The notes below the pieces were generated by a model. The model saw nothing but the letters and a program-made list of their open reading frames with translations. It was not told the origin of the DNA and searched no databases. From Dictyoglomus sp. NZ13-RE01 (GTDB taxonomy: Bacteria; Dictyoglomota; Dictyoglomia; Dictyoglomales; Dictyoglomaceae): a stretch of 64,000 nucleotides of DNA. The stretch lies in NCBI GenBank assembly GCA_002878375.1, contig NIRF01000001.1, forward strand, positions 186,001 through 250,000. Direction: 5' to 3'. The position numbers were made by a program, and so were the translations under genes. This document shows positions 5,664 through 16,131 of the stretch, piece by piece. Positions within the stretch are counted from its first letter, which is position 1. Each line of letters begins with the position of its first letter.

Positions 5664-7300
5664 ATGAAAATCCATAAAAGAGAAAAAGGTGATTTATCCA
5701 TTATAACTGCAATTACCTTTGCTTTTCTTTTGACTTCTTTAGTATTTTTATTTCTAACTTCTTCGGTAGAAGAGAATTTTTTTGTTAGAAGAGACCAGGC
5801 TAAAGATCAAGTAATGATAATTTAGCTAATAATATAGCTACTATTTACGATGCAACAAAACAAGTTGACCCTACCACCTCTTATACTATAATTTCTTATT
5901 CCTTTTCCTTAGCGTAATACACTACTAATTTAACTGGTATAACAACATGGGTCTCATATACCTATGTTTATACAATCACATCAAGAGGTTATAAGACATC
6001 CCCACCCCTTCTTTCTCTTACTATTACAACCTCTGGAAAAATTGAGGGAAGTGTATACATAGAAAATTTTGCAAGATTTGCACTTTTTACAAATATTCAC
6101 TTAATGGAGGATGGTACAAGAGTTTGGTTTACGAGTAATACGAGATTTAATGGACCAGTTCATTCAAACGGTGAGCTTTCCTTTGCCTATACACCTACTT
6201 TCTTAGATGAAGTATCATCATATTCAACAACTGCATGGTTCTATAATAACGGTAATAATAAACGACTAAGTGCGGATAGTAATCCCCCTTATGACACCCC
6301 AATATTTGCAAAAGGATTTAAAAGAGGTGCAACATACATAAATATGCCTACTGTTACATATACCCAAGTTGCTGCTACTTTAGGTATGCCAAATGCAAAT
6401 ATACAAAACGATAATCAAATGTATCAAACAATAAGAAGTGCCTTAGGGTTACCCTCAGGAACAACCCCTCCACCTAATGGAATATACACTCAAACCATTT
6501 TAAATGGTGGAGGTATATTTGTACAAGGTGATGCATCAATTAATTTTGGTATAGATTCCCAAGGAAGAGCAGTTTATACAATTACACAAGGTTCTACAAC
6601 ATATGTATTCACCATAGATAGAGCCAATAATAGAACATATGTAAATACTGGTACAAATACCATTACAATTAATGCTATTCCTAATGGAATGATTTATGTA
6701 AACGGAAATATAACTGGAATTAGTGGATTGATTCAAAAGGATGAACAACTAACAGTCACTGCAAACGGTAGTATTACTATTACCAACGATATAATTTACC
6801 AAGAAATATCAGATCAAAGCTATTATAATACCTATACTTCTCTCACACAAACCCTTACTCAACAGGGTAGATATTACTCATCTGTATCATACAATCCTAA
6901 TGCTCAAAATGTACTCGGATTATTGGCAAGAAGTGGAAATATTATAATTAATCCACCTCAAAATGTTGGAAATAATATTAAATATACTCATCCCTTTATA
7001 ACTGCAGTTTTAATGGCTCCAAGTGGAGTTGTAAAAGTCCAAGATTATAATACAAGACCTGAGGCAGGACAGGTCCACCTATTAGGTGGAATAATATCAA
7101 ACAGGTACGGTGCTTTTGGTACCTTTAGTGGTACTTCAAATAGTACAGGTTTTGGAAGAGATTTTTACTATGATTATCGCATGAGATCAGGTTTTTCTCC
7201 TCCCTACTTCCCAACTACAGGAAGAACGATGCTCCAAGAGGGGACAGTAAATAATCCAAAATGGCTAAATGTAGAAAAATGGGAGGAGAAATGGGAATAA
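5664..7300 (+). pseudogene. Disrupted PilX/DUF4900-like exported protein
   Basis: One long ancestral gene is visible in two frames. It starts at an ATG (5664) 8 bases after the ribosome site GGGGGAG, with an N-terminal membrane anchor (ITAITFAFLLTSLVFLFL). The frame then hits a TAG at 5823. Removing one base is enough to explain this: near 5813, GTA AAT GAT would restore the frame that continues DNLANNIATIYDATKQV. That frame meets a TAA at 5915-5917 and then stays open to 7300. The downstream part (FARFALFTNIH, TRFNGPVHSNGELSF) resembles DUF4900-type proteins of pilus loci, as I recall them. An ATG at 6104 opens the last 398 codons but has no ribosome site. Two lesions argue for decay; a sequencing error remains possible. 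Confidence 0.75.
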
Positions 7301-7301
7301 A

Positions 7302-7745
7302 ATGAGAAAGTTAAAACTTATAGATATAATTTTAATAATCCTTGCAATCATAATATTAGTTATTGCTTTTACGAATAAAGCTCCTAATAAAAGTAAAAAA
7401 ATAGAGAGCATTAAAGTAGAGGAGGATTTAAATAAGGAATCTAATAATATAAATATTAATGATATTGAGGAGCCTAAAGAAGAACCACCAAAAACTTTAG
7501 ATACTTATGAGGAAAGAGTAAAAAAGATGTATGAGCTCTTGCCTCTTTTAATTAAGGATTTAACAACTCAAAATCCAAGTTCAGAAGTAGTGGCAAAAAA
7601 AATTAAAATTAGGATATATTATGCAAACTCTCAAGGTGATTATGTTGATACAAATTTTCATAAAGAACCACCAGGCTCTGGATATATAAAAAGATTTGAA
7701 AATCCATTAGCAGAACTTTCGGAGGTTATTGAAAGACCATGGTAA
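7302..7745 (+). CDS. Small membrane-anchored protein of pilin-like cluster, unknown function
   Basis: A 147-residue protein I do not recognise. It has a short basic start, one hydrophobic segment at about residues 6-24 (IILIILAIIILVIAF), then a hydrophilic, Glu- and Lys-rich region up to residue 66. The folded part that follows contains YEERVKKMYELLPLL and KIKIRIYYANSQGDYVDTNF. It starts one base after the stop of the broken PilX-like gene and overlaps the next pilin-like gene by 7 bases, so the three form one transcription unit. It may be a bitopic assembly or minor-pilin chaperone-like protein, inferred only from context. If the upstream gene is truly dead, this one may be decaying too, but its frame is intact. 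Confidence 0.7.
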   Translation: MRKLKLIDIILIILAIIILVIAFTNKAPNKSKKIESIKVEEDLNKESNNININDIEEPKEEPPKTLDTYEERVKKMYELLPLLIKDLTTQNPSSEVVAKKIKIRIYYANSQGDYVDTNFHKEPPGSGYIKRFENPLAELSEVIERPW

Positions 7746-8464
7746 AAAGGATAAAGGGAATCACTTTAGTTGAATTATTGATATCCATAACAGTATTTTC
7801 TATCTTACTTCTTATATTATCCCAAGTATGGATAAGCATACAGAGAGATACCTTTATTCAAAAGACTGATATTGAGCTTGAAAGGAGTCTATCAAACGTT
7901 ATTACAAATTTAAGATCCTCTATTCAAAGGGCAATAGTAATATATACTCCTGGAATGACAATCTCTATTAATGATACATCAGGAAGCAAATACAGTGTAG
8001 GAAATTATTCTTTTGATACAAGTACCCAAGGAATTGTTTTAGTTTCTCCAATAACTAATAATAATTATAGATTTGATATTTTTGTAGTGAGATCAAGAAC
8101 AGGCTCTCTTTATGATCCTGCAAATCCAAATGCAAAAATACTTTTATATTATTCAAAAGTAATTTCCTGGACCCCCAACTATAACCAAGGAAACATAACA
8201 AATTTTGTTAAAAACTTCACCTTTACATCCTCAGAATCTCCAAAGGTACTTGCGGATTACATAGCCAGTAATGGCTTTAAATACAAATACCTTTATTTAG
8301 ATTCTCAATCAGGCACTTATAGCTTTTTTGAATTAACAAGTGCAACATATACTCCTGGAAAGAAGGTTCAGCAATTAGAAGTTAGTATAAAACTTCAAAA
8401 AAGGTGGGGACAATTTATAAGAGAAAAGAGCACTACTTTAAGATTTTCCCCAATTACATTTTAA
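7739..8464 (+). CDS. Prepilin-type minor pilin (PilW/GspJ-like)
   Basis: A 241-residue protein with a class III signal: basic MVKRIKG, then ITLVELLISITVFSILLL, with cleavage expected after Gly7 and Glu5 of the mature chain present. The rest is beta-rich and resembles PilW/GspJ minor pilins (LERSLSNVITNLRSSIQRAI after the helix). It is the last gene of the plus-strand cluster and runs tail to tail into the pilP-like gene, overlapping it by 11 bases. It would be processed by a prepilin peptidase, not encoded in this window, and assembled into a pilus or pseudopilus tip. Family is clear; exact subtype is less so. Confidence 0.82.
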   Translation: MVKRIKGITLVELLISITVFSILLLILSQVWISIQRDTFIQKTDIELERSLSNVITNLRSSIQRAIVIYTPGMTISINDTSGSKYSVGNYSFDTSTQGIVLVSPITNNNYRFDIFVVRSRTGSLYDPANPNAKILLYYSKVISWTPNYNQGNITNFVKNFTFTSSESPKVLADYIASNGFKYKYLYLDSQSGTYSFFELTSATYTPGKKVQQLEVSIKLQKRWGQFIREKSTTLRFSPITF

Positions 8465-8990
8465 TATTAAATATTTTTCCTTTTTTATCTCTAAAAATGA
8501 TCATACCTTTAGTTTCGTCAATCTTTTCTATTTTATAATCCCCTACTCTATCCCCTTCTCCACAAACAATGCTTTTGTCCTCATTTTTTGACTCTAATAT
8601 AGCAAGCAAAGTTTTCTCACTTTTTAATATCCCCCTTAGATAATAAGGTAGTTCTTTTGACTCCTCCCTTTTTTCTATATAGATTACTCCCTCCTGCTTT
8701 AAGGTTGGTTTAGGTTCTTCTCTTGAAATCTCCTCTTTAACTAATGGCAAGAAAGGATTTGCTCTTCCTAATTTTAAACTTTTTATATCCACAAATTCAC
8801 TTTCTACAAAGCTTGATAATGTACTATCTTTTTCTTTATCGGTTTTATCTTGGATGTAAGATACAGGTTTTGCTGGAATAGGTTCAATTTTGTATATAAT
8901 TTCATCCTGTTTCAACAAGGTATAAGTATTTAAGGCTATTGATAAGGAAGAAGCTATTAATATTAGTCCACCCCAAACCTTTTGTCTCAT
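8454..8990 (-). CDS. pilP: PilP/GspC-like pilus assembly protein
   Basis: A 178-residue protein, last gene of the minus-strand pilus locus. Residues about 7-23 are a membrane segment or uncleaved signal. A flexible linker follows, with the LGRANPFLPL motif typical of PilP and related proteins, and then a small beta domain (YYLRGILKSEKTLLAIL, GEGDRVGDYKIEKID, GMIIFRDKKGKIFNIKM) matching the PilP/GspC homology region. In known systems this domain links the inner-membrane PilN-PilO complex to the outer-membrane secretin, so its presence argues for a diderm envelope. It starts 3 bases after pilO on the same strand. No secretin gene follows; the next genes run in the opposite direction. Confidence 0.78.
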   Translation of the reverse strand: MRQKVWGGLILIASSLSIALNTYTLLKQDEIIYKIEPIPAKPVSYIQDKTDKEKDSTLSSFVESEFVDIKSLKLGRANPFLPLVKEEISREEPKPTLKQEGVIYIEKREESKELPYYLRGILKSEKTLLAILESKNEDKSIVCGEGDRVGDYKIEKIDETKGMIIFRDKKGKIFNIKM

Positions 8991-8992
8991 TT

Positions 8993-9538
8993 TTATTCCC
9001 CCTCTAAAAGATAAATTTCAATTTTTCCTTGGAAGTTAAGAGTTCCATTATCATCCACAAGACTCATTCTATAATTTGTAAATCTTATAGGATAATTTTG
9101 TAGTTCTAAATCCTGAAAGAATGTCATAAAATCTTGATATTTTCCAATAAACTGGAAATTTACAGGTATCTTTTTAACCTTGAAGGGAAAAGATGGAGGA
9201 AGATCTTGAACCTCTACTCCCTCTTCAGGTGTAATTGAGAAGGACACTATATTATGCTTTTTAAGGAGAATAGAAAGCTCCTTAAGAAATATTGAAAAGC
9301 TTTTTTTATCAAAAATCCTTCTTCTACCTTCCAACATGAGATTTTCTCTTTCCTTTGAGAGCATGTTTAGAATATCTTTTAGTTTGCTAAGCTCCTCAAT
9401 ACTATTTGTTAACTCTAATCTCATTTCTTTTACCAAGCTTTCCTCCTTCTTAAGAGACGAATACGATGGATATAGAAAAAGTACTACGCCTAATATGAGG
9501 ACTATAAAAAAAATCAAGACATCTATTCTTTCTCTCAT
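8993..9538 (-). CDS. pilO: PilO-like pilus assembly protein
   Basis: A 181-residue bitopic protein: membrane segment at about residues 6-24 (VLIFFIVLILGVVLFLYP), a coiled-coil stretch to about residue 70 (SLKKEESLVKEMRLELTNSI), then a ferredoxin-like domain with LKKHNIVSFSITP, FPFKVKKIPVNFQFIGKY and the FMTFFQDLELQNYPIR motif typical of PilO. It pairs with PilN in the inner-membrane alignment complex. Its ATG overlaps the stop of the PilM-PilN fusion by four bases (ATGA), indicating coupled translation and a fixed ratio. Length and order are as expected for this family. Confidence 0.85.
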   Translation of the reverse strand: MRERIDVLIFFIVLILGVVLFLYPSYSSLKKEESLVKEMRLELTNSIEELSKLKDILNMLSKERENLMLEGRRRIFDKKSFSIFLKELSILLKKHNIVSFSITPEEGVEVQDLPPSFPFKVKKIPVNFQFIGKYQDFMTFFQDLELQNYPIRFTNYRMSLVDDNGTLNFQGKIEIYLLEGE

Positions 9539-10931: not shown

Positions 10932-11330
10932 TTACTCCTCACTCCATAAAGTTATATTAATAATATAAGGGGTATATGTTCCACTTCTTTGACCTTCTAT
11001 TCTTAATGTTCTTGACCAAACACCTACTGTACCAGTAGATACAATTTCAAAAGTTGGAGAATACCAAAAAAAGGAGACAGTATATCTTCCTAAAGAACCT
11101 GTTTCAGTAACATTTGCTGATATAGTGAAGGAAGTAGGATTATCAGTCCAAATAGCACTACAAATACCAATCTCTGCTCCTCCCTCTGCAATATATAGAG
11201 CCTGTTTTTCTCCTATTTGGGCTCCCACCTTTCTTATATTTTGCTCCCAAATACTAAGAACCCCAGCCATAACTAAGCTGAGTATAACAAATATTAATAA
11301 AACTGCAATAATAATTTGACCTGATTTCAT
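10932..11330 (-). CDS. PilX/GspK-like minor pilin
   Basis: A 132-residue protein with an N-terminal hydrophobic helix (MKSGQIIIAVLLIFVILSLV) followed by EKQALYIAEGGAEIG, the Q-A-x-Y-x-A-E-x-G signature of PilX and GspK proteins. It lacks the usual Gly-Phe cleavage site with Glu5; the segment starts K-S-G-Q. The remaining beta region (GRYTVSFFWY, TGTVGVWSRTLRIEGQ) is short for the family. I chose the ATG at 11330, which overlaps the upstream stop as ATGA. A TTG at 11348 would add six residues, but neither start has a Shine-Dalgarno. It lies between the LTD-bearing minor pilin and the PilM-PilN fusion and may cap the pseudopilus tip. Confidence 0.78.
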   Translation of the reverse strand: MKSGQIIIAVLLIFVILSLVMAGVLSIWEQNIRKVGAQIGEKQALYIAEGGAEIGICSAIWTDNPTSFTISANVTETGSLGRYTVSFFWYSPTFEIVSTGTVGVWSRTLRIEGQRSGTYTPYIINITLWSEE

Positions 11331-12352
11331 GGCGAAGGAGGTAGACAATAGACTGTAATTTGAGATACTCTATAATTTGTATATGTACAACTACCCCAAT
11401 TTGATGGATCCTGAGATGCTCCTTCAATTGATTTCCTTAAAAGTGAGAAATAATCATTTCCAGAATGAAATCCTCCCCATGTGGAAGTATATTGAACTAT
11501 ATCTACAACTCTATTAATTGTATTTTTAACCTCAACAGTATCACCTTTATTATTTAGAATCGCCCCATTACTACCTAAACCATCACTATTCGTCTCAAGA
11601 ACAATTGTATTATTTGGAATATTATAATGAGATGGAAGATTTGAACCATTAGCACCTATTAAGGCGCACCAACCAGGAGGAAGATTAAAACTTCCTGACC
11701 TTACACTACTTATTATATTCCCATTAACCTTCCAATTTTGTAGATTTATTGTATATGTTGTTCCATTATAAATTTTAATAAATTCCATATAAGCCTCCTT
11801 TGGATTATTACTATTTTTATCCTTTGGGGGAAGATCATACATAATTTCTGTAATAAATATAGAATAAGTGACGGGAACAATTTCTGATCTCATACTTATG
11901 TATGTAGAATATTTCTTTTCATTATCCATTACTACAGTAATAGATAAGGTTCTTATGGCGGATGCCAAGGTTGTATAGGTTCCTTGGGCATCAAGACCTA
12001 CAAATCTTAGCTCTTTAATAGGTCCTGCCTGAATTTCATTATCTACAGTGAAATAATACTTTCCATTGTATAAAGTATAGGAATATGAAACAGAATCTCC
12101 TGATGAAAGATTCAAGGTTAAATACCCAAGGGTTTGAGTAGATGGACTTATATCTAATACTTGAGAGCCCTGTCTTATCTCCCTTGTTAATCTATCAAAA
12201 ATGATCTGAACATTTGAAAGCCTTTCTTCCTCTTCAAACTTTGCATTATATATATCAAAAACCCTTGGAAGAATATTTACAAGGAGCAAAGCCAATAAAG
12301 CTAATATAGAGACAGCAGTGAGGATCTCAATAAATGTAAATCCCCTCTTCAT
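11327..12352 (-). CDS. Minor pilin (PilW/GspJ-like) with C-terminal lamin-tail domain
   Basis: A 341-residue protein. The start MKRGFTFIEILTAVSILALL is a class III prepilin signal: cleavage after Gly4, Glu5 of the mature chain present. Residues about 30-160 resemble PilW/GspJ (IIFDRLTREIRQGSQVL). Residues about 165-330 look like a lamin-tail domain (LTD): FITEIMYDLPP, EAYMEFIKIYN, INLQNWKVNG, FNLPPGWCALIGAN, LNNKGDTVEVK, VVDIVQY, then SLLRKSIEG with SQDPSNWG, the closing signature of LTDs. Bacterial LTDs are known mostly from secreted or cell-surface proteins, including nucleases. Here the domain would sit at the outer end of a pseudopilus. The gene lies between the PilV-like and PilX-like genes. 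Confidence 0.85.
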   Translation of the reverse strand: MKRGFTFIEILTAVSILALLALLLVNILPRVFDIYNAKFEEEERLSNVQIIFDRLTREIRQGSQVLDISPSTQTLGYLTLNLSSGDSVSYSYTLYNGKYYFTVDNEIQAGPIKELRFVGLDAQGTYTTLASAIRTLSITVVMDNEKKYSTYISMRSEIVPVTYSIFITEIMYDLPPKDKNSNNPKEAYMEFIKIYNGTTYTINLQNWKVNGNIISSVRSGSFNLPPGWCALIGANGSNLPSHYNIPNNTIVLETNSDGLGSNGAILNNKGDTVEVKNTINRVVDIVQYTSTWGGFHSGNDYFSLLRKSIEGASQDPSNWGSCTYTNYRVSQITVYCLPPSP

Positions 12353-12354
12353 TT

Positions 12355-12771
12355 TTATCTTCTCCTTGATATTATTGAAACAAGTATACTTCTCTCCTCA
12401 CCGGAATCTAAAATACCATTATTATTTGTATCTTCCCCTACTTTAACTGTCACCTGTTTTAGCTTATCAGTTAACGTTGGATCAGGTAAAATCGTATAAG
12501 TTAACGTCGTATATGTTATTGAATATAAATAATTTGTCCAGCCCTCAGAAGAAAAATTTCCAGATAATGTAAAGCTTGCTGTCCAATTATTTATTATTGC
12601 CTTCCTATACTCTTCAAGCTTTTTTTCTGCCAAAATTAATGCTTGACTTTCTGCGGTTATTAATGAATCTTCTATTAATATATTTGAAATTCCCATCCAA
12701 AAATAAGTAAGAATTAAACTTAATAATAAAATAGAGACAAGAACTTCTATAAGGGTAAATCCCCTTTTCAT
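12355..12771 (-). CDS. Minor pilin (PilV/GspI-like)
   Basis: A 138-residue prepilin: MKRGFTLIEVLVSILLLSLIL gives a textbook class III signal with cleavage after Gly4 and Glu5 of the mature chain. The helix continues into EDSLITAESQALILAEKKLEEYRKA, the A-x-x-L-A-E-x-K-L-E-E pattern of PilV/GspI proteins. A short beta domain follows. Residues DTNNNGILDSGEE form an EF-hand-like acidic loop, which may bind calcium as in other pseudopilins. Its stop is two bases before the LTD-bearing pilin and its start overlaps the upstream FimT-like gene by four bases, so the minor pilins are co-translated. Confidence 0.87.
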   Translation of the reverse strand: MKRGFTLIEVLVSILLLSLILTYFWMGISNILIEDSLITAESQALILAEKKLEEYRKAIINNWTASFTLSGNFSSEGWTNYLYSITYTTLTYTILPDPTLTDKLKQVTVKVGEDTNNNGILDSGEERSILVSIISRRR

Positions 12772-13247: not shown

Positions 13248-13712
13248 TTACTCAAACCCAACCTTTCCATTCCTATTAAATTTTATGATTCTTTTTCCAA
13301 GATATGTGGAGACTGTAATTTCTCCCTCAGGATATAAATTTCCATTTTCAAAATAAAAAGTGTAAGTATTTGTAGGGCTTGTTATTTTTATGCCAGAGGG
13401 AACAAGCTGGGGAAGAAGATATGATTTTTTGGAATTTTCTCCATAAATCCAATAATAAAGAGCGGATTTATATTTTGGTGAATATTCAAAGCTATAAACT
13501 ATCTTTTCCTGCTTTAAAATAGAAAGCTCCAAGGCGTATCTTGCATTTATAATAATATCATGAGAAATAATAAAGGCTTGAGCTCTTAGAAGGATGAAAA
13601 TATGAATAAGCATGTATAAAAGAAGAGTAAGGATAGATATTAGAATAATATAGATGATTACTCTATCAATCTTTTGGAGACTATCTTTTAAAATTTTTAA
13701 TTTCTCTCTCAA
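13248..13712 (-). CDS. Membrane-anchored minor-pilin-like protein without prepilin site
   Basis: A 154-residue protein. Residues 1-17 are charged (KLKILKDSLQKIDR), 18-42 are a membrane helix (VIIYIILISILTLLLYMLIHIFILL), and the rest is beta-rich. The C-terminal half ends FYFENGNLYPEGEITVSTY then RIIKFNRNGKVGFE, similar in pattern to the closing strands of FimT/GspH. There is no Gly-Phe-x-x-x-Glu cleavage site, so a normal prepilin peptidase should not process it. The frame starts at a TTG at 13712 with no Shine-Dalgarno, so the start is uncertain. It lies between the major-pilin terminator and the FimT-like gene. I do not recognise the family. Confidence 0.65.
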   Translation of the reverse strand: MREKLKILKDSLQKIDRVIIYIILISILTLLLYMLIHIFILLRAQAFIISHDIIINARYALELSILKQEKIVYSFEYSPKYKSALYYWIYGENSKKSYLLPQLVPSGIKITSPTNTYTFYFENGNLYPEGEITVSTYLGKRIIKFNRNGKVGFE

Positions 13713-13742: not shown

Positions 13743-13766
13743 GCCCCGAAGGATTTCCTTCGGGGC
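13743..13766 (-). terminator. Terminator after major pilin gene
   Basis: The arms GCCCCGAAGG and CCTTCGGGGC form a 10-bp GC-rich stem with a 4-base loop. On the minus strand it is followed by TTTTTCTTTT, a good U-tract. It lies 17 bases after the pilin stop. Since the minor pilin genes follow directly without a clear new promoter, it probably acts as a partial terminator that makes major pilin more abundant. Confidence 0.88.
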
Positions 13767-13783: not shown

Positions 13784-14161
13784 TTATGGTTTGTAATAAT
13801 CTAAACTATAAGAGTTTCCTGTTTTTGTATAGTTTAATATATGTGGATTATTTTCATCGGGAGTTATATTATTATCTACAGTATAATATTTATCATTATA
13901 TGGACAACGAGGACGCTCTGCAAAATATGTAGTATCTTGCAAAAAAGCATTAAATGCAGCAGCATCTGCAGGATACGAACCGGTTTTATTTCTATAATAC
14001 TCTAAACTAGTTTGAATAATAGCTATATTTGCTCTATGGGCGTTCTTCTTTGCATCATCAACTGCTTCAAAATATCTTGGTAGTGCAATTGCTGCTATTA
14101 TTCCTAAAATAGCGATCACTACTAAAAGTTCTAATAGGGAGAATCCTTTGCTTCCCTTCAC
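13784..14161 (-). CDS. Major pilin / pseudopilin (GspG- or PilA-like)
   Basis: A 125-residue prepilin starting MKGSKGFSLLELLVVIAILG, with cleavage expected after Gly6 and Glu5 of the mature chain (Glu11 of the precursor). The helix continues through IIAAIALPRYFEAVDDAKK. The short globular part (ANIAIIQTSLEYYRNKTGSYP, then DNKYYTVDNN-like turns and a Tyr-rich end) has the size and layout of GspG major pseudopilins. It starts with GTG, 6-7 bases after the strong site AGGAGGTGA. It has its own promoter and a strong terminator, as expected for the most abundant subunit. Whether the fibre is a pilus or a secretion pseudopilus cannot be told here. Confidence 0.9.
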   Translation of the reverse strand: MKGSKGFSLLELLVVIAILGIIAAIALPRYFEAVDDAKKNAHRANIAIIQTSLEYYRNKTGSYPADAAAFNAFLQDTTYFAERPRCPYNDKYYTVDNNITPDENNPHILNYTKTGNSYSLDYYKP

Positions 14162-14202: not shown

Positions 14203-14230
14203 ATTATATCACAAACTATTTCTTTTACAA
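14203..14230 (-). promoter_or_regulatory. Promoter of major pilin gene
   Basis: A consensus TATAAT (14208 down to 14203) with TTGTAA (4 of 6 matches) as -35 box and a 16-base spacer. It lies inside the last codons of the MNT gene and just after it, and would start transcription near 14196, about 35 bases before the GTG. Confidence 0.68.
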
Positions 14231-14571
14231 AGAACTTTTCCTTCTTTTAAAATATTACTAAATAAAATCTTTTCTTCTTTTGTAATTACAATTATGTCCA
14301 CTGCAATTTTTAATTGTTCTGAGAAGAATTTGAAATAGGGCTTAATCCTCAGAATAAAATCTTCCTCCTTCTTTTCCTTTTCAACTATTAATAAGTCCAC
14401 ATCAGAAAGCCCATGAAAGTCTCCTCTTGCAAGAGAGCCAAAGAGAATTATCTCATCAATATTGGGAAAAAGCTCCATTGCAGTTTTGCATGATTCTTCC
14501 AACTTTTTAAAAAGCTCTTCTTTATCTAAATAAATGGCTTTCACAGAACCTGATGATATTACTCGCCTCAC
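14209..14571 (-). CDS. MNT-type nucleotidyltransferase (antitoxin of HEPN-MNT pair)
   Basis: A 120-residue minimal nucleotidyltransferase. The motif GSLARG is at residues 45-50, the paired aspartates DVD at 57-59, and the third acidic residue lies in VDIIVI near 92. In studied HEPN-MNT pairs this protein modifies the HEPN RNase with AMP and blocks it. The start is GTG at 14571: AGGAGG sits 6 bases upstream, so it overlaps the HEPN gene by 50 bases. A second in-frame GTG at 14544 has no such site. The pair sits between pilC and the major pilin gene. The family is firm; the role as an antitoxin is inferred. Confidence 0.9.
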   Translation of the reverse strand: MRRVISSGSVKAIYLDKEELFKKLEESCKTAMELFPNIDEIILFGSLARGDFHGLSDVDLLIVEKEKKEEDFILRIKPYFKFFSEQLKIAVDIIVITKEEKILFSNILKEGKVLCKRNSL

Positions 14572-14914
14572 TTATTGCCTCCTGAGCTTTTGATCTATTA
14601 AAATAATCTGCAGGTTTTCCAGATACAAAACCGTTTGGATATCTCGTTGAGATATAGAAGATATCTAAAAATTGGGCAGATTCTTTTATTTTTTCTGGTA
14701 TCTCTATATGATCTTTTAAAAGTTCCAACATTTCTGTTAATGAATGTCCCCATAATTCATATCCAATTTTTAGACCTAAAGCTTTAATAATTTTTTCCGC
14801 TGATTGCTGGGCAGAAAAACATGCCCACTCATAAAAACCATTCTCCATATCCAACTTTGCTTTTTCTAAATCTCTAATACCTTGCTCATACCAGTCTTTC
14901 CATCTACTTTTCAT
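14522..14914 (-). CDS. HEPN domain protein (putative RNase toxin)
   Basis: A 130-residue all-helical HEPN protein: DWYEQGIRDLEKAKLDME, YEWACFSAQQSAEKIIKAL (the usual A-x-F-x-x-Q-Q-A-x-E-K pattern), HSLTEMLELL, and the C-terminal R-x4-H motif RFCESH at residues 122-127, the catalytic pair in HEPN RNases. It overlaps the MNT gene by 50 bases and starts 11 bases after pilC stops, behind the ribosome site AGGTGA. Such pairs are typical toxin-antitoxin modules in thermophiles. Position inside a pilus operon is unusual and may mean co-option or simple insertion. Confidence 0.9.
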   Translation of the reverse strand: MKSRWKDWYEQGIRDLEKAKLDMENGFYEWACFSAQQSAEKIIKALGLKIGYELWGHSLTEMLELLKDHIEIPEKIKESAQFLDIFYISTRYPNGFVSGKPADYFNRSKAQEAISEASNIIRFCESHLFR

Positions 14915-14925
14915 CCATCTCTCAC

Positions 14926-16131
14926 CTATCGTCTAAAGAGTCTTACCATATTAAACATGGGTAGGTACATAGAAAGAGCTATAAAGAATACAATTCCACC
15001 AAGAACCAGAGTGATGAGAGGCTCAATGAGAGAAGTCAATCTTTTTGTTTGATTGTCAAGCTCTCTTTGAGAAAATTTTGAGTATTCCTCAAGCATTTCA
15101 TCCACTCTTCCACTTCTCTCCCCTACTCCAACCATTCTTACAAGCATAGGGGTAAACATCTCCTCCTCTGCCATTGCTTCAGAAAGACTCCTTCCTTCCA
15201 TTATAGCTCTATAAATTCTTTTAAGTCCATCTGCAAAGTATAGGTTTCCTACAACATCCTGAAGAATTTCCAAGGAGTGGGTAACAAGAATTCCACTGGA
15301 AAGGAGAATGGCAAAAGTAGATGCAAATCTTGTTAAAATTAACTGTCTCCACATTTTACCAATTCTGGGTATGTTTAGCTTTTTCTCATCCCACCATCTT
15401 TTCACTTTTGGATTTGAAAGTAAAATTCTTGTAAGAATAAAAAGTCCTATAAAAATAATGAATAAAAATAGGATATTGTTTTTTACAAAGGCACTTATTC
15501 CTAAAAGCATTCTTGTGGGAAGTGGAAGAGGGACATTCATCCTTCCATAAATTCTTTGGAAGGTTGGAACTACAAAGGTTAAAAGAAAGATTACAACACC
15601 AATTGCAGCAATAATTACTATGGTAGGATAGGTTAATGCGGATTTTATTTTCTCTCTTAATTCATGCTGTGAGTCAAAATACCTTGCAAGTCTATCAAGC
15701 ATTATGTCTAAGCTTCCTGTTACCTCTCCAGTCCTCACAAGACTTATAAAGATGTTTGGAAATACATTTGGAAATCTACTTAAAGCCTCAGAGAGACTTT
15801 CTCCACCATCTATACTTAACCTAACTTGTCTTAATACTTCCTTGAAATATTCGTTATCTGTTTGTTGGGCTAAAGTTATTAAAGCATCAGTTAATAATAT
15901 TCCTGATCTTAAAAGGGTTGCAAATTGAGAGGTAAAAATTACAAGCTCTGGTAGAGTAACCTTTTTGCTAACAGTTAATGTTTTCCAAAATGAAGATTCT
16001 TTTTTTAATGATATTACATATAATCTCTGTCTTCTAATAAGTCTTCTTGCATCTCTCTCCGATTCTGCCTCAATAATACCTTTTAGTATTCTTCCTTGAG
16101 GGTCCTTCGCTGTATATTCAAAGCGAGGCAA
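14926..16131 (-). CDS. pilC: PilC/GspF inner-membrane platform protein
   Basis: A 401-residue protein with the full GspF/PilC plan: N-terminal YTAKDPQGRILKGIIEAES, then two homologous helical domains each followed by membrane segments. The first repeat reads FTSQFATLLRSGILLTDAL with FPNVFPNIFISLVRTGEVTGSL; the second reads FASTFAILLSSGILVTHSL with FTPMLVRMVGVGERSGRVDEML. The C-terminus ends in the usual hydrophobic span and MYLPMFNMV. It anchors the motor ATPase and helps extract or insert pilins. It begins 2 bases after pilB on the same strand. Length is normal for the family. Confidence 0.95.
   Translation of the reverse strand: MPRFEYTAKDPQGRILKGIIEAESERDARRLIRRQRLYVISLKKESSFWKTLTVSKKVTLPELVIFTSQFATLLRSGILLTDALITLAQQTDNEYFKEVLRQVRLSIDGGESLSEALSRFPNVFPNIFISLVRTGEVTGSLDIMLDRLARYFDSQHELREKIKSALTYPTIVIIAAIGVVIFLLTFVVPTFQRIYGRMNVPLPLPTRMLLGISAFVKNNILFLFIIFIGLFILTRILLSNPKVKRWWDEKKLNIPRIGKMWRQLILTRFASTFAILLSSGILVTHSLEILQDVVGNLYFADGLKRIYRAIMEGRSLSEAMAEEEMFTPMLVRMVGVGERSGRVDEMLEEYSKFSQRELDNQTKRLTSLIEPLITLVLGGIVFFIALSMYLPMFNMVRLFRR

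What the first reader, a model, noticed from the sequence alone, without database searches (positions are those of the whole stretch)
11327..12352. Minor pilin carrying a lamin-tail domain at its outer end
The sequence shows a standard prepilin signal and PilW/GspJ-like start, then about 165 residues with the full run of LTD signatures up to SQDPSNWG. LTDs are known mainly as modules of nuclear lamins and of secreted bacterial proteins, often near nucleases or DNA-uptake proteins. In this position the domain would be displayed at the tip of a pseudopilus or pilus, where it could bind DNA, a surface or a polysaccharide. I do not recall a described example; it may define a pilus with an LTD tip.
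Basis: partly seen in the sequence, partly recalled or inferred. Interest (0 to 1): 0.62.

Follow-up and report, generated by a model that had tools for sequence, protein, structure and literature searches.

The report
Pilus tip protein carrying lamin-tail domain
A heat-loving Dictyoglomus relative makes a minor subunit of a bacterial surface filament with an added lamin-tail domain, probably a grafted binding head at the filament's end; the add-on principle is known, but this head has not been described on a pilin in the papers searched.

Summary
The 341-aa gene at 11327-12352 (-) encodes a prepilin (MKRG|FTFIE) with a genuine lamin-tail domain (PF00932, 48 bits against a 34.3 cut-off). The genome is from the Dictyoglomaceae. 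The gene takes the gspJ place in a conserved operon E-F-G-X-H-I-J-K-PilN-PilO-like. Orthologues in four related genomes carry TWO tandem LTDs, so the window copy has most simply lost the second. Three of those genomes also carry an orphan paralogue, again with two LTDs. The LTDs are under purifying selection (dN/dS 0.09-0.29). The neighbouring K subunit is short and lacks room for the alpha-domain of T2SS GspK. Best reading: a 'modular pilin', with the LTD as a ligand-binding head at the filament tip. Modular pilins are an established class (264 architectures, PMC8179133). The architecture is not unique: a second small lineage (G321) carries GspG-like prepilins with an LTD, so grafting probably happened at least twice; 76 other complete LTD genes checked were not prepilins. 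The ligand is unknown; near-neutral LTD charge gives no support to bulk DNA binding. AlphaFold models were too poor to use. New member of a known kind; moderate interest.

The parts
12281..12352 (-). Class III (prepilin) signal and N-terminal hydrophobic helix, MKRG|FTFIEILTAVSILALLALLL; predicted cleavage after Gly4, Glu5 of the mature protein present
   Evidence: TIGR02532 23.7 bits over cut-off, PF07963 20.1 bits; direct reading
11876..12280 (-). GspJ/PilW-like pilin core (residues 25-159)
   Evidence: weak TIGR01711 GspJ match residues 3-62; operon place; most conserved part between window and relatives, 60-64% identity
11330..11875 (-). Lamin-tail domain region (residues 160-341); Pfam match 164-289 = 11486-11863
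   Evidence: PF00932 48 bits; profile-profile 99.3% with other bacterial LTDs
11327..12352 (-). whole gene: gspJ-like modular minor pilin with one LTD; second LTD of the orthologues is missing at its 3' end (YCL-PP-SP stop)
10932..11330 (-). short GspK/PilX-like minor pilin, 132 aa from the ATG overlapping the J stop; no room for the T2SS GspK alpha-domain
   Evidence: NF037980 GspK 19.5 bits over residues 10-59, model of 307 positions; short in relatives too
12355..12771 (-). gspI/pilV-like minor prepilin
   Evidence: PF07963 29.6 bits
12768..13199 (-). gspH/comGD-like minor prepilin
   Evidence: PF07963 23.3 bits; ComGD 38.5 bits, below its cut-off
13248..13712 (-). conserved membrane protein X of the operon, one N-terminal helix, no prepilin motif, no family match
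13784..14161 (-). gspG-like major (pseudo)pilin, followed by a strong hairpin terminator at 13743-13766
   Evidence: GspG 57 bits (below cut-off), T2SSG 26.1 bits; terminator
14926..16131 (-). gspF/pilC platform protein
   Evidence: PF00482 204 bits
16134..17822 (-). gspE/pilB assembly ATPase with MshEN domain
   Evidence: PF00437 437.6 bits, PF05157 66.5 bits
9535..10929 (-). PilN-domain protein with long N-terminal part (GspL-like layout)
   Evidence: PF05137 49.2 bits at residues 386-459; N-terminal part not matched by any model
8993..9538 (-). PilO/GspM-like protein (by position and layout only)
   Evidence: no convincing family match; same place in relatives
8454..8990 (-). PilP/GspC-like protein (by position and layout only)
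   Evidence: no convincing family match; same place in relatives

Best explanation
The gene makes a modular minor pilin. Its N-terminal helix and GspJ-like core are cleaved, inserted and polymerised like any type IV pilin by the E-F-PilN/PilO-like machine encoded around it. With the short H-, I- and K-like subunits it builds the complex that starts the filament and ends up at its outer end. The lamin-tail domain that follows the core is too bulky to pack easily along the shaft and is held out at the tip, where it acts as a ligand-binding (adhesive) head for a surface or extracellular polymer. Shown here: prepilin signal, LTD, operon place, conservation and purifying selection, tandem LTDs in relatives. 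Inferred: tip position, adhesive role. The ligand is not known; a polysaccharide or surface protein is slightly preferred over DNA.
For: Prepilin motif and LTD both at significant scores in one intact ORF. Gene order G-X-H-I-J-K conserved in several genomes, with the LTD always on J. Orthologues in G001, G003, G004, G005/L002, and an orphan paralogue in three of them, with two LTDs. dN/dS on LTDs 0.09-0.29. Modular pilins with vWA, lectin or beta-solenoid heads are known or proposed tip adhesins or DNA receptors (PMC8179133, PMC6561018). Same idea in prepilin-LTD proteins of a different pilin type in G321.
Against: No usable structure model (mean pLDDT 39.5 and 37.4), so packing at the tip was not tested. 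The ligand is unknown and no bacterial LTD ligand is established (PMC6085458 says the role is not elucidated). Loss of one LTD in the window genome, and decay of the divergent minor-pilin operon next door, suggest that the head is partly dispensable here.
Confidence: 0.55

Rival explanations
1. Tip DNA receptor for natural transformation: the LTD binds extracellular DNA and retraction brings it to ComEC, as proposed for Thermus ComZ.
For: ComEC is present in all six family genomes searched and PilT-type ATPases are present; LTDs occur in DNases and in ComEC-like metallo-beta-lactamase proteins (L171 read); ComZ is a GspK-like pilin with an added domain that binds DNA.
Against: LTDs here have net charge -2 to +3 over 175-225 residues; ExeM without its LTD still degrades DNA almost like wild type in vivo; ComEC is found in most bacteria and so is no specific link; the LTD gene is not beside competence genes.
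Confidence: 0.17
2. Substrate-handling head of a type II secretion-like pseudopilus: the LTD on J, together with the short K, recognises exoproteins (for example glycosidases) and pushes them through the outer membrane.
For: Gene order and the layout of the PilN protein resemble T2SS; J, I and K form the T2SS pseudopilus tip (PMC8179133).
Against: No secretin gene in this cluster; the only secretin of each genome lies elsewhere, in sister species beside a separate type IV pilus locus. No GspJ, GspK or GspG equivalog cut-off reached.
Confidence: 0.17
3. Structural role only: the LTD is a cap or spacer that stabilises the tip or holds the filament in its channel, with no outside ligand.
For: K lacks an alpha-domain, so some other part may cap the tip; LTD copy number varies from one to two, which suits a spacer.
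Against: LTD sequence is under purifying selection and keeps family-specific motifs, which a pure spacer would not need in detail.
Confidence: 0.11

Closest known systems
Modular type IV pilins (Streptococcus sanguinis PilB with vWA, PilC with lectin module; PMC8179133)
   Same: N-terminal pilin module plus a recognisable extra domain fused C-terminally, proposed at the tip
   Different: Extra domain is an LTD, in tandem in most relatives; the carrier is GspJ-like in a T2SS-like operon; no experiment here
Thermus thermophilus ComZ (PMC6561018)
   Same: T2SS-pseudopilin-like minor pilin of a thermophile with a large added beta domain
   Different: ComZ is GspK-like with a beta-solenoid inserted in the pilin sheet and shown to bind DNA; here an LTD follows the core of a GspJ-like pilin
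T2SS minor pseudopilins GspI-GspJ-GspK
   Same: Same gene order and J/K neighbours
   Different: GspJ has no LTD and GspK has an alpha-domain; here the extra bulk is on J and K is short; no secretin in the cluster
Secreted bacterial LTD proteins (for example ExeM of Shewanella; PMC6085458)
   Same: Extracellular LTD, in other proteins also in tandem repeats
   Different: Those are Sec-exported, not prepilins
Prepilin-LTD proteins of G321
   Same: Prepilin signal plus C-terminal LTD
   Different: Carrier is GspG-like (35% identity to the window's GspG), single LTD, two genes side by side

Membership tests
Lamin-tail domain (PF00932) | score over the curated Pfam cut-off | tested here: met
   48 bits against 34.3; 51.1 in genome search
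Lamin-tail domain (PF00932) | Ig-like beta fold | tested here: inconclusive
   AlphaFold2 models with 2-3 sequences had mean pLDDT 39.5 and 37.4; no fold search was made on them
Type IV pilin | class III signal: short basic leader, Gly, then hydrophobic residue, Glu5, hydrophobic helix | tested here: met
   MKRG|FTFIE...; TIGR02532 over cut-off
Type IV pilin | processed by prepilin peptidase and built into a filament | not testable with these tools
   a protein with the look of a prepilin peptidase is read in the T4P locus of a sister species (L025); no experiment
[quoted passage not shown]
   TIGR02532 plus PF00932 in one ORF
GspJ (TIGR01711) | equivalog cut-off 64.85 bits | tested here: not met
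   26.7 bits over residues 3-62
Type II secretion system | cognate secretin GspD with the cluster | tested here: not met
   one secretin per genome, on another contig here (G000:C12), and in a sister species near the T4P locus
Type II secretion system | GspK with alpha-domain, about 300 aa | tested here: not met
   K-like ORF of 132 aa here, 133-144 aa in G001 and G004
Competence DNA-receptor pilin | binds DNA; needed for transformation | not testable with these tools
   only indirect: charge near zero, ComEC present

The most novel reading that the evidence does not exclude
In Dictyoglomaceae the tip of a T2SS-like filament has been re-engineered: the GspK alpha-domain cap is absent and its job has moved to one or two lamin-tail domains grafted on GspJ, with an orphan paralogue giving an interchangeable second tip. 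The LTD would thus be a new class of filament tip module that arose at least twice.
Probability: 0.2. Interest if true: 0.6.

Novelty: new member of a known kind. Interest (0 to 1): 0.4.

Why it matters
It gives a concrete place and role to test for bacterial lamin-tail domains, whose function is unsettled, and adds a head to the list of modules that bacteria fuse to pilins. Orthologous and paralogous pilins with one and two LTDs allow a direct comparison. If the LTD binds a polymer found in hot springs, it would explain how a little-studied phylum attaches to its substrates.

Tried and rejected
Structure prediction of the whole protein (2 sequences) and of the LTD alone (3 sequences) gave mean pLDDT 39.5 and 37.4; fold searches were not run on them because the tool warns that low-confidence models give meaningless matches. 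Relatives in viral contigs: none, and a broad LTD profile had no stretch conserved enough to scan with. Idea that the architecture is confined to Dictyoglomaceae: first supported by a 386-genome profile search, then rejected when L136 was found. Literature for 'lamin tail domain' with 'pilin' gave one unrelated paper; the supplementary list of 264 modular pilin architectures could not be read, so it may already contain LTD. Idea that the single LTD is an assembly collapse: rejected, since the two LTDs of relatives are too different from each other to collapse (45-47% identity) and the gene joins the next one cleanly.

Full report
Observation. The ORF at 11327-12352 on the minus strand is 341 codons long, starts with ATG and ends in the ATGA overlap of the next gene. 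Its start reads MKRG|FTFIEILTAVSILALLALLLV, a class III prepilin signal; TIGR02532 scores 23.7 bits against a cut-off of 16.3 and the GspJ model matches residues 3-62 weakly. Residues 164-289 match PF00932, lamin-tail domain, with 48 bits against a cut-off of 34.3. It is the only LTD in this 1.93-Mb genome. A three-row profile of Dictyoglomaceae LTDs aligns to a profile of 14 other bacterial LTDs at 99.3% probability, and that profile reaches lamin A/C and lamin B structures in the PDB with E about 0.01 to 0.04.

Organism. A relative found by protein is labelled Dictyoglomaceae bacterium RSWP16 (L002). Two same-family genomes have one contig each of 1,959,987 and 1,855,560 bases, which I recall as D. 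thermophilum H-6-12 and D. turgidum DSM 6724 (memory, not tested). The window belongs to another genus of that family.

Surroundings. On the minus strand the order is gatA-gatB-gspE-gspF-gspG-X-gspH-gspI-gspJ(LTD)-gspK-PilN-domain protein-PilO-like-PilP-like; gatA and gatB are named from reading. The same order is found in G004 (L018), G003 (L019), G005 (L023, up to the J gene at the contig end) and, from J on, G001 (L022). Names for H, I, K, PilO and PilP rest on place, layout and weak model scores. There is one secretin per genome and it is not in this cluster; in a sister species (G002) it lies just behind a separate set of pilM-N-O-like genes and minor pilins. There are two PilB-type ATPases per complete genome, one in this cluster and one beside a PilT-like gene. 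The cluster is therefore a second type IV filament machine. I do not file it as a T2SS because it lacks its own secretin and a full-length GspK.

Relatives of the gene. Orthologues in G003, G004, G005/L002 and G001 carry a second LTD directly behind the first. The G001 copy is cut by a contig end at its 5' side and the G005 copy by a contig end at its 3' side. G003, G004 and G005 also have an unlinked paralogue of about 560-570 aa with two LTDs (L020, L021, L024). G002 lacks a hit, but its contig ends soon after gspG, in front of the expected place, and G006 is 72% complete, so neither counts as an absence. The window copy ends in VYCL-PP-SP where the others run VYCL-(second LTD)-YCTPGxKNSxSP, so it has most simply lost the second LTD. 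By Nei-Gojobori, dN/dS is 0.09-0.18 for LTDs between the two Dictyoglomus species and 0.285 for the LTD between window and G001 (some dS values are near saturation). The domain is therefore kept by selection.

How widespread. A profile of the whole protein against 386 genomes found the full architecture only in this family, but only three candidates per genome were scored. A second search with PF00932 found LTDs in 183 of 385 genomes. I read the starts of 78 distinct complete LTD genes outside the family. Two of them, side by side in one genome (G321, locus L136), have a prepilin start (N_methyl 34 and 34.8 bits; LTD 62.7 and 58.1 bits). A third gene of the same genome, fetched later (L160/L172), has a prepilin-like start and an LTD match of 38.1 bits. 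The carrier in L136 is GspG-like, 35% identical to the window's GspG over 107 residues, and matches the window's J core only in the signal. So the LTD has probably been joined to pilins at least twice, on different carriers. The count rests on the highest-scoring LTDs listed and is not a census.

Mechanism. Modular pilins, with a functional domain fused to a pilin module, are widespread; the authors argue that the bulk of the extra domain favours the tip (PMC8179133). ComZ of Thermus is a parallel in a thermophile, with an added beta domain and DNA binding (PMC6561018). In T2SS, I, J and K form the tip and K carries an alpha-domain (PMC8179133). Here K has 132 residues and J carries the LTD. 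I therefore infer a tip-displayed binding head. The ligand is open. LTD net charge is -2 to +3, which does not suggest bulk electrostatic DNA binding but does not exclude a local site. The literature on bacterial LTDs offers membrane association, DNA and oligosaccharide contexts without a proven ligand (PMC6085458, PMC4486849).

Limits. Two structure predictions were unusable. Tip position, filament formation and ligand binding are inferred. The supplementary list of modular pilin architectures was out of reach, so LTD may already be in it.

Verdict. A real, conserved and selected prepilin-LTD protein; an instance of a known design with a head that I could not find described. New member of a known kind, interest 0.4.

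Noticed in passing
5664-7300 (+): A DUF4900 (PilX-like) large minor pilin is broken in the window: its prepilin start (about 5664-5816) and its body (from about 5810) are in different frames with stops between and about 40 residues missing or unrecognisable, while relatives have an intact gene of about 568 aa.
   Followed up: partly
7302-7745 (+): The N-terminal two thirds of a PilV-like prepilin (190 aa in G001) are gone and the rest is fused behind the small upstream membrane protein; the divergent minor-pilin operon appears to be decaying in this genome but is intact in G001, G003 and G004.
   Followed up: partly
14209-14914 (-): A nucleotidyltransferase (PF18765/PF01909) and HEPN (PF05168, 112.9 bits) pair, of the MNT-HEPN toxin-antitoxin type, sits between gspF and gspG; the pair is absent at this place in L018, L019 and L023.
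   Followed up: partly
13743-13766 (-): Strong intrinsic terminator hairpin (10 pairs) right behind the gspG-like major pilin gene, which could make the major pilin more abundant than the minor pilins behind it.
   Followed up: no
L136:1905-3386, L160:1281-2162: G321, from a small phylum with nine held genomes, has three prepilin-LTD genes, two of them side by side, with a GspG-like carrier.
   Followed up: partly
L020:6418-8118, L021:8217-9920, L024:6921-8591: Orphan paralogue of the LTD pilin with two LTDs, away from any pilus operon, conserved in place beside an OsmC-like gene and an RlmI-like methyltransferase gene (neighbour names from reading only).
   Followed up: partly
13248-13712 (-): Conserved operon protein X, with one N-terminal helix and no prepilin motif or family match, lies between G and H in the relatives whose operon covers that stretch; its C-terminal end looks like that of GspH-like pilins.
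   Followed up: no
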